From NCBI GenBank assembly GCA_007127165.1, contig SKZV01000202.1, positions 1 through 51,249 of the forward strand: DNA of 51,249 bases, in the 5' to 3' direction. The position numbers were made by a program, and so were the translations under genes. Source of the DNA: Rhodovibrio sp. Lineage in GTDB: Bacteria > Pseudomonadota > Alphaproteobacteria > Kiloniellales > Rhodovibrionaceae. The notes beneath the pieces were generated by a model. The model did not search any database and was not told the origin of the DNA. It saw only the letters and a list, made by a program, of their open reading frames with translations. Shown piece after piece: positions 33,784 through 37,646 of the stretch (positions are counted from its first letter, which is position 1; each line of letters begins with the position of its first letter).

Positions 33784-35127
33784 ATGGCACTCCCCTCTCG
33801 CGCGAAGTACGTCGTTATCGGGGCCGGCGTGCACGGCCTGTCCACCGCCTGGCATCTGGCCGAGATGCTGGAAGCCAAGGGCAAGGGCGGCGGCGCGGAC
33901 ATCGTCGTTCTCGACAAGGGCGGCATCGCCTCCGGGGCCAGCGGCATCGCCTGCGGCGTGGTGCGCAACAACTACTTCCAGCCCGCGATGCGCGAGCTTA
34001 TGGCCCACTCGGTCGAGGTGTGGGAGAGCGATCCGGCGGCCTTCGCCTACAACCCCGTCGGCTATATGCAGATCAGCCCGGAGAGCATGCACGCCGACGT
34101 GGCCGAGATTTACCAACAGCAGCAGGCCATCGGCTACGAAAGCGACTTCATCGAGGGCGAGGCGGACAGCGCCACCTACATGAAGGGCCTCTTCGACGAC
34201 TGGCAGGCCAAGGGCATCACCTCGGTTCTGCACGAAAAGAAGGGCGGCTTCGCGCACAACACGAAGTCGATCTACGGCCTTGCCGGAAAGGCCGAGGCCA
34301 AGGGCGTGCGCGTCCTCACCGGCGTCACCGTCACCGGCTTCCAGACCGGCCACAACTCCGCCGCCGTCACCGCCGTCGAGACCGACCGCGGCGTTATCGA
34401 GTGCGAGCAGATCGTCGTCGGCGTCGGCCCCTGGGTGAAGCAGATTTGGGACATGCTGGAACTGCCGAAGACCGTTTCGATCAAGGGCCGCGACGGCCAG
34501 ATGCACGAGGGCGTCGGCATGTGGCGCTACTGGGCCTTGCAGGAGGGCGTTCTGGGCGTTGATCCGGACTTGCAGAAGACCAACAGCGGCGACGTGCCCC
34601 CGGTGATCCACGTCGACAGCGACGAGCCGCTCTACAGCGACGTCGACGGCTCGCTGATCACCGACAAGATGTGGGGCATCTATTACAAGCCCGACACCCA
34701 CTTCGGCGGCGTCCAGGGCGGCGCGGTCCCGCATCAGGTCGAAACCGACCCGGATCAGGTGCAGGTGGACCCCTACGGCCCGGCCTCGCCCGACTTCGTG
34801 GTGGACGACGAGTTCGCCCACATGTGGTGTTCCGCCCTCGCCTTCTGCCAGAAACGCTTCGAGGGCCAGATCGTGAAGTACCGCAAGGAGCCCTCGGGCG
34901 GCATCGGCTGCTTCACCCCGGACTCCTTCCCGGTCATCGACCGCTTCCGCGAAAACGTCTACGTCATCGCGGACTCGAACCACGGCTACAAGATGATCGG
35001 CGTCGGCAAGCTGGTGGCGCAGGAACTCCTGAACGGCGAAAGCGCCCTCCTAAAACCCTTCCGCTTCGACCGCTATGAGAAGGGCGAACTCCACCCGACG
35101 AGCCACAGCCCCTTCCCCTGGAGCTGA
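33784..35127 (+). CDS. DAO-family FAD-dependent oxidoreductase
   Basis: A 447-residue flavoenzyme. It starts with KYVVIGAGVHGLSTAWHLAE, the FAD dinucleotide-binding motif near residues 8-27, followed by GASGIACGVVRNNYFQPA, where a DAO-family oxidase has its R-N/S-x-x-x motif. Asp/Gly-rich loops and the C-terminal VYVIADSNHGYKMIGVGKLVAQELL complete the fold. The enzyme would oxidise an N-methyl amine or amino acid. It diverges from the sox operon, so it is probably induced by the same substrate. AAGGAG precedes ATG 33784 and a strong terminator follows. It is not a duplicate of soxB; only the general fold is shared. Confidence 0.85.
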   Translation: MALPSRAKYVVIGAGVHGLSTAWHLAEMLEAKGKGGGADIVVLDKGGIASGASGIACGVVRNNYFQPAMRELMAHSVEVWESDPAAFAYNPVGYMQISPESMHADVAEIYQQQQAIGYESDFIEGEADSATYMKGLFDDWQAKGITSVLHEKKGGFAHNTKSIYGLAGKAEAKGVRVLTGVTVTGFQTGHNSAAVTAVETDRGVIECEQIVVGVGPWVKQIWDMLELPKTVSIKGRDGQMHEGVGMWRYWALQEGVLGVDPDLQKTNSGDVPPVIHVDSDEPLYSDVDGSLITDKMWGIYYKPDTHFGGVQGGAVPHQVETDPDQVQVDPYGPASPDFVVDDEFAHMWCSALAFCQKRFEGQIVKYRKEPSGGIGCFTPDSFPVIDRFRENVYVIADSNHGYKMIGVGKLVAQELLNGESALLKPFRFDRYEKGELHPTSHSPFPWS

Positions 35128-35266: not shown

Positions 35267-35473
35267 ATGGCTGACCGCAAACAGTTCGCAAAGACAACTG
35301 CGCCGGACCCCGAGCTTGCCGCGCTGCTGGAGGCTGCGCGCGGGCGGGAGGTGACGGAGGAGGAACTGCACGAGCAGCGAGTCAGCTTCGCTTACGGCAA
35401 CGCGCTCAATTCGGACAGCATCACCAAGGAAAGCGTCCGCAGAACCTCGCAAAATATTCGCCTACGCGGTTAA
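35267..35473 (+). CDS. Small Fic-partner protein (VbhA-like antitoxin candidate)
   Basis: A 68-residue acidic protein placed 13 bp before the Fic gene, as antitoxin partners of class I Fic toxins are. The segment VTEEELHEQRVSFAYGNALNSDSITKESV aligns with the orphan paralogue at 36527-36700 at SF-x-YGN and IT-x-E, but the paralogue has E-N where this protein has N-S. VbhA antitoxins use a (S/T)xxxE(G/N) helix to block the toxin. The missing Glu means inhibition by the classical helix is doubtful here. A CGAGGG ribosome-binding site is present. The protein may be an accessory partner rather than the inhibitor. Confidence 0.6.
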   Translation: MADRKQFAKTTAPDPELAALLEAARGREVTEEELHEQRVSFAYGNALNSDSITKESVRRTSQNIRLRG

Positions 35474-35486
35474 TCGGCCAAAAAGC

Positions 35487-36086
35487 ATGTCGGTTCGAGA
35501 AAAGGACAGCCCGGAGCTATTCGCCCGCGTCCAGGAACAAAACCTTCTCCGTCAATACGATCTATTGGCCAACTGCATCGAAATCGGCCTGGAAAAAGGC
35601 ATTGAGGATTTCGATAAGTACACGCTTTGGTCCCTCAATCAAGCAGCGGTTGCCAACATAGCGCAGTTCGGTGGCAGATAGCGCGAAGAACCCATTTACG
35701 TCGCCGATCACATACCGCCTCATTTCAAACATGTACCGCACTTAATGGATCGCTTTCTTTCGGTGATCCATGAAAACTGGACAGTCATCGACCACCCCAC
35801 CTACTTGGCAGCCTACGCGCTGTGGCGGCTGAACTGGATACATCCCTTTGTCGAAGGCAACGGCAGGACGGCGCGGGCGGCTTGCTATTATTTGTTATGC
35901 CTGCGGTACGGCGGCTTGTTGCCGGGAAAGAAGATCGTCCCCGAACGAATCCGGGAAAACCGGAAACCCTACTACGAAGCACTCCGCGCAGCCGACAGAC
36001 GATGGGAAGACGGCCATTTCGACGTTTCCCAACTTGCCGGGTATCTTGAAGGGCTGCTCAAGGATCAATTGAGCGAGACACGGTAA
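35487..36086 (+). pseudogene. Fic-domain protein interrupted by an amber codon
   Basis: Codon 65 (35679-35681) is TAG; the frame is otherwise open through 199 codons. The N-terminal half (NCIEIGLEKGIEDFDKYTLW) and the C-terminal half join as QFGGR-stop-REEPIYVADHI, where Fic homologues usually carry Tyr or Phe, so a Tyr codon TAC/TAT mutated to TAG is the simplest history. The catalytic motif HPFVEGNGRTAR (His119) is intact, matching HPFx[D/E]GNGRxxR, so the AMP-transfer or phosphotransfer core is preserved. An ATG at 35745 could start a truncated protein but has no ribosome-binding site. Broken gene, or a programmed amber readthrough. Confidence 0.85.
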
Positions 36087-36116
36087 GTTGGATTAACGCC
36101 GTGCTCCGAATAAACG

Positions 36117-36346
36117 CTAGGCGGGCTTGGCAAGATCGCGCATCGTACGGCGGTAGCGTTGCGCAAAGGCGCGGCCGATTTCCATCGAACGGGCGTAGTC
36201 ACCGTCGGACTTGACGATCCGCAGGCTTCCGTCCTCAACAAGAACGTCACGGTATCTCCAAGCTCCAGCCCCGCCGCCTGCAAGACATCCTTGCCGAGCG
36301 TCAATCCCGTCGAATTCCCATGCCGAACCAACTTCGCCGTCTGCAT
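36117..36346 (-). pseudogene. AbrB/MazE-type antitoxin gene, frameshifted
   Basis: The N terminus MQTAKLVRHGNSTGLTLGKD (36346 downwards) and the C terminus DVLVEDGSLRIVKSDGDYAR (to 36117) are both convincing for an AbrB-fold antitoxin but lie in different frames. Restoring one base after the GTG codon near 36248 joins them as G-D-T-V-D-V-L-V-E-D, so a single-base deletion is the likely cause. The C-terminal helix (MEIGRAFAQRYRRTMRDL) is like that of antitoxins paired with Doc/Fic toxins, but no toxin gene follows on this strand. Confidence 0.8.
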
Positions 36347-36526
36347 CGCCGGACCCTACTATTAGAACGCGTGTACTCACAAAAGATACGGAGCCGGGCG
36401 GCGGCGGTCAAAGTGTCCGTCTCCCTCAATGGACCTTCGCGCAAGCCCCCCAGCCCCGCCGATTTCCACTACCAGTAGGCGAGCGTCCCCGCTAAACTGC
36501 CCCTGCAACCGAAAGGGGAAACCGCC

Positions 36527-36700
36527 ATGTCACCCGACCTGGAAGCGCTCATCGCCCAAGCGCGCCAACACGTCATGACGCCGGAAGAGGAGCGCGCACA
36601 GCGGCGCAGCTTCGTCTACGGCAACACCCGCATCGAAAACGCCCGCATCACCCGCGAATTGGTCGATGAGGTGGACCGAGAGCTTGAGTGGGGCCGGTAG
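36527..36700 (+). CDS. Orphan 57-residue Fic-antitoxin-like protein
   Basis: Not a long frame but a credible gene: AAAGGGGAAA precedes ATG 36527 by 6-8 bases. The protein reads MSPDLEALIAQARQHVMTP, then EERAQRRSFVYGNTRIEN, ARITRELVDEVDRELEWGR. It is homologous to the Fic partner at 35267 through RRSF-x-YGN and IT-x-E. The sequence NTRIEN contains Glu-Asn, close to the inhibitory (S/T)xxxE(G/N) helix, although the Ser/Thr sits one residue off. No Fic gene follows it; the next gene is an opposing LysR. It is an orphan antitoxin or the remnant of a second module. Confidence 0.7.
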   Translation: MSPDLEALIAQARQHVMTPEEERAQRRSFVYGNTRIENARITRELVDEVDRELEWGR

Positions 36701-36740: not shown

Positions 36741-37646
36741 TTACACGGTGCGCGCCGCTTCCGCCTCCGTGCCGATCCACCTACGAAAGGATCGGACGGC
36801 TGGGGTTTCGAGATCTTGGCGCGGCTGGCAGAGATACCAACCCTGAGATCGAGTGACGACGGAAACGTGCGCGGGCACAAGCTCGCCCCGCGCCAACTCG
36901 GCGGCGATGAAGGCGCGATTGGCCATCATGAGTCCCAGGCCATGCACGGCAGCCTGAATCGCCAGGCCGCACGTATCGAAAACCTCCTGCGCGGGCGGTA
37001 GCGGCCTCTGGACACCCACGCTTTGCAGCCATTCCGGCCACACATCCGGCGTTGAGGCCACCTGAATAATGGGTAAGGCAAGCAGGTGTTCGGGCGATTG
37101 CAGCGGCTTGTATCCGGCGAGCAAGCTTGGGCTTGCGACCGGGATCAGTTGTTCGGGAAAAAGAAGCTGCTTTGTGCTCGCGGGCCAGTCCCCTTCTTGC
37201 CCGTACCAGATTCCCGCCTGCGCATGCTCCGTGAACGCGCCCACCTCCGTCGATGTTTGTAGACGCACACGAACATTCGGATAGCGCTGCGCCAAAAGCG
37301 GAAGCCTGGGCAACAACCATCGCTCGGCGAAGGTCGGCATGACGTCAATCACAGCGCTGCGTTGACGCTCGTAGACGTTAAGGTGTTTCGCTCCGTCTAA
37401 AAGCTGCCCAAAAGCGGCGTCCACGAAGGGCCGATAAGTCTCTCCTGCCGCCGTAAGCTGAACGCGGCTGTTCTCCCGAACAAATAAGGGAACGGTTAGG
37501 CTCTCTTCCAGCGCACGAATATGACGGCTGACGGCCCCAGGCGTGACGCCAAGGTCCTCCGCCGCCTTGGTAAAACTCTCCAACCGAGCCGCCGCCTCGA
37601 AAGCGCGGAGCGCATTCAAGGACGGCAGAGTCCGTCCCCTGGTCAT
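36741..37646 (-). CDS. LysR-family regulator, GcvA-like
   Basis: A 301-residue LysR regulator. The N-terminal winged helix is typical of GcvA-like members: LPSLNALRAFEAAARLESF, then TKAAEDLGVTPGAVSRHIRALEE. The effector domain follows (RWLLPRLPLLAQRYPNVRVRLQ). It is divergent from the EamA gene over 185 bp, so EamA is the natural target. The effector is unknown. Together with the second regulator at 48633 the window has two GcvA-like LysR proteins that are paralogous in the helix-turn-helix. Confidence 0.92.
   Translation of the reverse strand: MTRGRTLPSLNALRAFEAAARLESFTKAAEDLGVTPGAVSRHIRALEESLTVPLFVRENSRVQLTAAGETYRPFVDAAFGQLLDGAKHLNVYERQRSAVIDVMPTFAERWLLPRLPLLAQRYPNVRVRLQTSTEVGAFTEHAQAGIWYGQEGDWPASTKQLLFPEQLIPVASPSLLAGYKPLQSPEHLLALPIIQVASTPDVWPEWLQSVGVQRPLPPAQEVFDTCGLAIQAAVHGLGLMMANRAFIAAELARGELVPAHVSVVTRSQGWYLCQPRQDLETPAVRSFRRWIGTEAEAARTV

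What the first reader, a model, noticed from the sequence alone, without database searches (positions are those of the whole stretch)
35267..36700. Cluster of toxin-antitoxin remnants, with two paralogous Fic partners
Within 1.4 kb there are four pieces: a Fic partner, an amber-split Fic gene, a frameshifted AbrB/MazE antitoxin on the other strand without toxin, and an orphan 57-residue paralogue of the Fic partner with a good ribosome-binding site. The two partners differ exactly at the inhibitory motif, N-S versus E-N. The orphan with Glu-Asn may have remained as an anti-toxin safeguard (anti-addiction), while the paired one lost the Glu. This is an inference, but the sequence difference is visible.
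Basis: partly seen in the sequence, partly recalled or inferred. Interest (0 to 1): 0.6.

Follow-up and report, generated by a model that had tools for sequence, protein, structure and literature searches.

The report
Toxin–antitoxin graveyard; Glu-less Fic partner
Three broken or incomplete toxin-antitoxin modules lie side by side in a bacterial genome; the small Fic partner that seemed to have lost its key glutamate by decay turns out to belong to a whole family of intact pairs that never carry it at that place, so these must control their toxin in a way not yet described.

Summary
All four pieces are present. They are remnants of three modules: a Fic pair (partner 35267-35473; fic 35487-36086 with an in-frame TAG at 35679), an AbrB-type antidote of the Doc-partner family with a frameshift and no Doc (36346-36117, minus strand), and an orphan FicA-like antitoxin (36527-36700). 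In 18 relatives of the paired protein (itself included) none has the [S/T/N]xxxE[G/N] motif, and 15 precede an intact Fic gene with a canonical active site. All 23 sequences of the orphan's type keep it. The Fic tree splits the same way (each clade 100/98 or better), so 'N-S' versus 'E-N' marks two Fic clades, not decay. The orphan is a leftover of the other clade, whose toxin is gone here. The anti-addiction idea is untested. The new point is the clade itself: an AMPylation-competent Fic motif with a partner lacking the glutamate that VbhA and AntF need for inhibition. A predicted fused model docks this partner like an ordinary one (pLDDT 87, pTM 0.87). Best guess: glutamate-independent inhibition; not shown.

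The parts
35267..35473 (+). 68-aa FicA-like partner of clade B, without the inhibitory Glu (loop A46-L-N-S-D at 35402-35416), with the clade-specific N-terminal extension MADRKQF
35487..36086 (+). clade-B fic gene interrupted by an in-frame TAG at 35679-35681; one lesion in 199 codons
35679..35681 (+). premature TAG; intact relatives have a sense codon here
35841..35876 (+). Fic active-site motif HPFVEGNGRTAR, complete, downstream of the stop
36117..36346 (-). AbrB/MazE-like antidote of the Doc-partner family (TIGR02609), split by a frameshift around 36248-36281; no Doc gene behind it
36527..36700 (+). 57-aa orphan FicA-like antitoxin of clade A, Glu-Asn at 36635-36640, own ribosome-binding site, no Fic gene behind it
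33784..35127 (+). left neighbour, FAD-dependent oxidoreductase (DAO family), chromosomal metabolic gene
36741..37646 (-). right neighbour, LysR-type regulator

Best explanation
The 1.4 kb is a small island of three decayed type II toxin-antitoxin modules. (1) A clade-B FicTA-like pair whose toxin was inactivated recently by a nonsense codon (or by a sequence error in this draft assembly). (2) An AbrB-Doc module from which Doc is gone and whose antidote is frameshifted. (3) A clade-A FicTA module of which only the antitoxin is left. The E-N versus N-S difference is an old difference between two Fic clades. [quoted passage not shown] In clade B the partner is predicted to dock at the same place, but its inhibitory helix ends at the conserved Asn and it carries no Glu at that position. 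I infer that it restrains its Fic enzyme by another contact (the short loop, or the clade-specific MAxRK extension) rather than by the salt bridge, and that the complex cannot reverse AMPylation as Fic-1-AntF does. Shown: anatomy, homology, pairing, clade structure, absence of the motif. Predicted: docking. Inferred: the inhibition mode.
For: Partner motif [STN]xxxE[GN]: 23/23 in clade A, 0/18 in clade B in register (alignment). Fic ML tree: A and B each 100/99, C 100/98, B+C sisters 100/99, labels need the minimum of 2 changes. In 385 genomes of the class, 11 clade-B partners, all directly before a clade-B Fic frame, 8 of them intact. More intact pairs in the order and phylum samples, on a plasmid and on three viral contigs. 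Near-saturated synonymous change with nonsynonymous change of 0.07-0.40 in partner and toxin. Clade-B motif HPF(I/V/L)EGNGRTAR in 16/16. Fused partner-Fic model pLDDT 87.1, pTM 0.87 with a 3-helix partner; Foldseek aligns it along nearly its whole length with class II Fic proteins, like the clade-A control. AbrB relatives: 7 of 9 followed by Doc. The Glu is needed for inhibition and deAMPylation in AntF (PMC13327609) and for inhibition in VbhA (PMC3667792).
Against: No clade-B pair has been tested in any source found, so toxicity and inhibition are unproven. One clade-B partner (L075) has an E-N one residue further on, and the window's own group has an Asp at residue 50, so an acidic residue could in principle reach the arginine. 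Clade-B Fic proteins carry an S/T-xxx-E-N/G string at the end of the helix after the flap (15 of 16 rows). It is not at the class II or class III position, but a role is not excluded.
Confidence: 0.72

Rival explanations
1. One reading: the paired partner lost its Glu through decay and the Glu-bearing orphan was kept as an anti-addiction safeguard.
For: The orphan is intact, has a good ribosome-binding site and the full motif. Two other genomes (G372, G402) carry such antitoxins without a Fic gene. Orphan antitoxins with this proposed role were described on pVbh.
Against: Glu absence is clade-wide beside intact toxins. The orphan's own clade partners a different Fic clade. The neighbouring clade-B toxin is dead, and no class I toxin is left in the assembled genome.
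Confidence: 0.08
2. Clade-B partners are not inhibitors; they act as chaperone or substrate adaptor for a Fic enzyme that needs no inhibition because its activity is mild or has another target.
For: The Glu needed for inhibition in VbhA and AntF is absent. The partner is nevertheless conserved and always present. In sister clade C the catalytic acid is replaced by Asn (HPFINGNGRTAR), so function has shifted in this branch.
Against: Clade B keeps every canonical AMPylation residue. Operon layout and mobile settings (plasmid, integrase-bearing contig) are those of toxin-antitoxin modules.
Confidence: 0.3
3. The amber and the frameshift are errors of a draft assembly and the Fic pair is intact.
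For: 353 contigs, 92% complete. Only one lesion in 199 codons, with conservation continuing after it.
Against: The AbrB gene next to it also has a lesion and two toxin genes are missing outright. Two relatives (G141, G318) have broken fic genes too.
Confidence: 0.2

Closest known systems
VbhA/VbhT of Bartonella schoenbuchensis (class I FicTA; 3SHG, 3ZC7)
   Same: small antitoxin gene directly before fic; three-helix antitoxin; canonical Fic motif
   Different: clade-B partners lack the [S/T]xxxE[G/N] Glu and have an N-terminal extension; sequence similarity to VbhT is confined to the Fic core (E=0.007) and neither partner has a convincing PDB match
Fic-1/AntF of Pseudomonas bijieensis (8WT0; PMC13327609)
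   Same: class I layout; Fic motif residues that AMPylate GyrB are all present in clade B
   Different: AntF E28 is required for inhibition and for deAMPylation by the complex; clade B has no counterpart at that position
Clade-A alphaproteobacterial FicTA pairs (L001, L002, L003 and others)
   Same: the orphan is a member by sequence (51-61% identity)
   Different: the orphan has no toxin gene; the paired partner of the window belongs to another clade
AbrB-Doc addiction modules (TIGR02609 antidote, Doc toxin)
   Same: remnant at 36346-36117 matches the antidote; relatives are followed by Doc
   Different: frameshifted and without Doc

Membership tests
Class I FicTA module (pair at 35267-36086) | Fic domain with HxFx(D/E)GNGRxxR | tested here: met
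   HPFVEGNGRTAR, Pfam E=5e-15; the reading frame is interrupted by TAG
Class I FicTA module (pair at 35267-36086) | small antitoxin gene directly upstream | tested here: met
   35267-35473, 13 nt before fic; same layout in relatives
Class I FicTA module (pair at 35267-36086) | antitoxin carries [S/T]xxxE[G/N] with the inhibitory Glu | tested here: not met
   0 of 18 clade-B partners in register
Class I FicTA module (pair at 35267-36086) | toxicity relieved by the partner | not testable with these tools
   needs growth assays
Class II or class III Fic (inhibitory helix in the same chain) | [S/T]xxxE[G/N] before helix 1 or after helix 7 | tested here: not met
   only occurrence is at residues 92-97, at the end of the helix after the flap
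Class I FicA antitoxin (orphan 36527-36700) | motif with Glu followed by Gly/Asn | tested here: met
   N-T-R-I-E-N, with Asn in place of Ser/Thr as throughout clade A
Class I FicA antitoxin (orphan 36527-36700) | fic gene directly downstream | tested here: not met
   LysR gene follows on the other strand; no clade-A Fic in the assembled genome
AbrB-Doc module (36346-36117) | antidote of TIGR02609 type followed by Doc | tested here: not met
   antidote fragment matches TIGR02609; no Doc behind it, unlike 7 of 9 relatives

The most novel reading that the evidence does not exclude
A widespread alphaproteobacterial clade of Fic toxin-antitoxin pairs whose antitoxin holds an AMPylation-competent Fic enzyme in check without the inhibitory glutamate that defines Fic classes I-III, and whose complex therefore should not be able to reverse AMPylation in the way Fic-1-AntF does.
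Probability: 0.45. Interest if true: 0.6.

Novelty: new variant of a known kind. Interest (0 to 1): 0.4.

Why it matters
The inhibitory Glu is held to be the common switch of Fic enzymes, and the canonical Fic proteins left outside the three classes are a minority (about 10%, PMC3667792). A defined clade with intact catalytic motif, FicA-like partner and no Glu at that position gives a concrete place to ask how else a Fic enzyme can be controlled. For the window itself, the result turns an apparent decay story into an ordinary one: leftovers of three modules.

Tried and rejected
Empty-site test: the flanking oxidoreductase was found in six relatives at 68-76% identity, but the gene order is not kept, so no empty site could be shown. 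No long flanking repeats that would mark an insertion; the fic stretch is AT-richer (GC 0.51-0.58 against about 0.65 around it), but so is the EamA gene nearby. An inhibitory helix in cis in clade-B Fic: the only motif-like string lies at the end of the helix after the flap, where clade A has mostly another residue before the Asn. Suppressed or reassigned TAG: considered unlikely, because the orphan's own frame ends in TAG. Pfam, NCBIfam and PHROGs have no family for either small partner; the annotated phage collection has no clade-B Fic. The fourth locus (L004) is a chance match inside another protein. dS is saturated in nearly all comparisons, so no dN/dS ratios are given. Model coordinates were not returned, so distances to the second arginine could not be measured.

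Full report
WHAT IS THERE. The four pieces are real. On the plus strand a 68-aa gene (35267-35473) is followed after 13 nt by a fic gene (35487-36086) that is open but for one TAG at 35679-35681; the second part keeps the complete active-site motif HPFVEGNGRTAR (Pfam Fic, E=5e-15). On the minus strand 36346-36117 encodes, in two frames, an AbrB/MazE-like antidote (first part TIGR02609 'doc_partner', E=1e-5). A 57-aa gene follows on the plus strand (36527-36700), and then a LysR gene on the other strand. The two small plus-strand proteins are homologous (42% identity, E=3e-4) and have no further homologue in the assembled genome. The genome holds one other Fic gene over the cut-off (418-aa open frame, another type) and a weak Doc-like match.

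That is essentially what is found (the exact residues at the site vary; the Glu is absent). Searching with the Fic protein (TAG read as X), with both partners and with a relative's proteins in the order and class of the window, the phylum, plasmids and viral contigs gave 18 relatives of the paired protein, itself included. None has [S/T/N]xxxE[G/N] in register, and all are one residue shorter than the other type at this place. Fifteen precede an open clade-B Fic frame with canonical motif; three precede a broken one (window; G141, a frameshift; G318, several lesions). In the 385-genome class sample every clade-B partner has its Fic frame (8 intact, 3 broken), and no clade-B orphan was seen.

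TWO CLADES, NOT DECAY. The orphan type (23 sequences) always keeps E-N and normally precedes another Fic clade. A maximum-likelihood tree of 38 Fic proteins separates A (partners with Glu), B (partners without) and a small C, each with strong support, B and C being sisters (100/99). The partner labels need only the minimum number of changes. Fisher's test on 23/23 against 0/18 gives 5e-12, but the tree shows that this is one event and not 41 independent ones. Clade-B partners also share a 12-residue N-terminal extension beginning MAxRK in most, and a basic C-terminus. Both genes of clade B change little at nonsynonymous sites while synonymous sites are near saturation, so the pairs appear to be kept by selection.

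THE ORPHAN. By sequence it is a clade-A antitoxin (51-61% identity to named and unnamed members). In the class sample most such antitoxins have a Fic frame behind them (about nine open, four broken); three have none: the window, G372 and G402. Toxin loss with retained antitoxin therefore recurs, in a minority. Whether the orphan protects against anything is untested; no clade-A toxin is left in the assembled genome. The anti-addiction idea for orphan antitoxins has been proposed for pVbh (PMC5675462).

THE AbrB PIECE. Of nine relatives (other genomes), seven are directly followed by a Doc gene. The remnant is thus most likely half of an AbrB-Doc module.

HOW CLADE B MIGHT WORK. In VbhA and AntF the Glu of the inhibitory helix holds the second Arg of the Fic motif; changing it to Gly frees the toxin (PMC3667792, PMC13327609), and in AntF it also abolishes deAMPylation by the complex. 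Clade B lacks this residue but keeps every catalytic residue. A chain in which the stop between partner and Fic of a viral-contig pair (L082) was read as a residue was folded with 13 aligned rows: pLDDT 87.1, pTM 0.87. The partner forms three helices, the second ending at the conserved Asn, followed by a loop; in the clade-A control (L002; pLDDT 89.3, pTM 0.86) that helix runs two residues further, to just before the Glu. Foldseek aligns both models along nearly their whole length with class II Fic proteins, in which the inhibitory segment is in the same chain, so the partner is predicted to sit at the usual place. Inference: restraint by the loop or by the extension instead of the salt bridge. 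An adaptor role without inhibition is the main rival. A string S/T-xxx-E-N/G does occur in clade-B Fic proteins (15 of 16 rows), at the end of the helix after the flap; clade A mostly has another residue before the Asn there and clade C an Arg. It is not at a class II or III position, and I do not take it for an inhibitory helix, but a role is not excluded.

LIMITS. Draft assembly (353 contigs): the TAG and the frameshift could be sequence errors. The relatives sampled are mostly of one class. No coordinates, hence no distances. Papers searched are open-licence only, so an earlier description of Glu-less class I-like pairs may exist elsewhere.

Noticed in passing
L043 1465-2098 (G141), window 35679: The closest relative of the window's fic (78-84% identity) is also broken, by a frameshift only a few codons from the position of the window's TAG; two independent lesions at almost the same spot, unexplained (possibly chance).
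   Followed up: partly
L027, L030, L070, L071: Sister clade C (Rhizobium and Phaeobacter plasmids and others) has HPFINGNGRTAR, i.e. Asn for the catalytic Asp/Glu, together with partners that lack the Glu motif: probably a changed enzymatic activity.
   Followed up: partly
L069 2726-2959 (plasmid pMSC49a): The clade-B partner gene is not listed in the plasmid gene table although its fic gene is; such partners are easily overlooked.
   Followed up: no
L080, L081, L082: Clade-B pairs lie on IMG/VR contigs, one next to a phage-type integrase frame; PHROG family 23170 (unknown function) matches this Fic clade.
   Followed up: partly
L067 (G000:C338:3936-4262): The genome has an uninterrupted Fic gene (418-aa open frame, HPFLDGNGRVAR) of another type, not examined for its inhibitory motif.
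   Followed up: no
L036/L049, L039/L050, L031/L048, L051: Clade-A fic genes are also often broken (internal deletion, frameshift, stop, truncation) beside intact antitoxins, as expected for toxin-antitoxin decay.
   Followed up: partly
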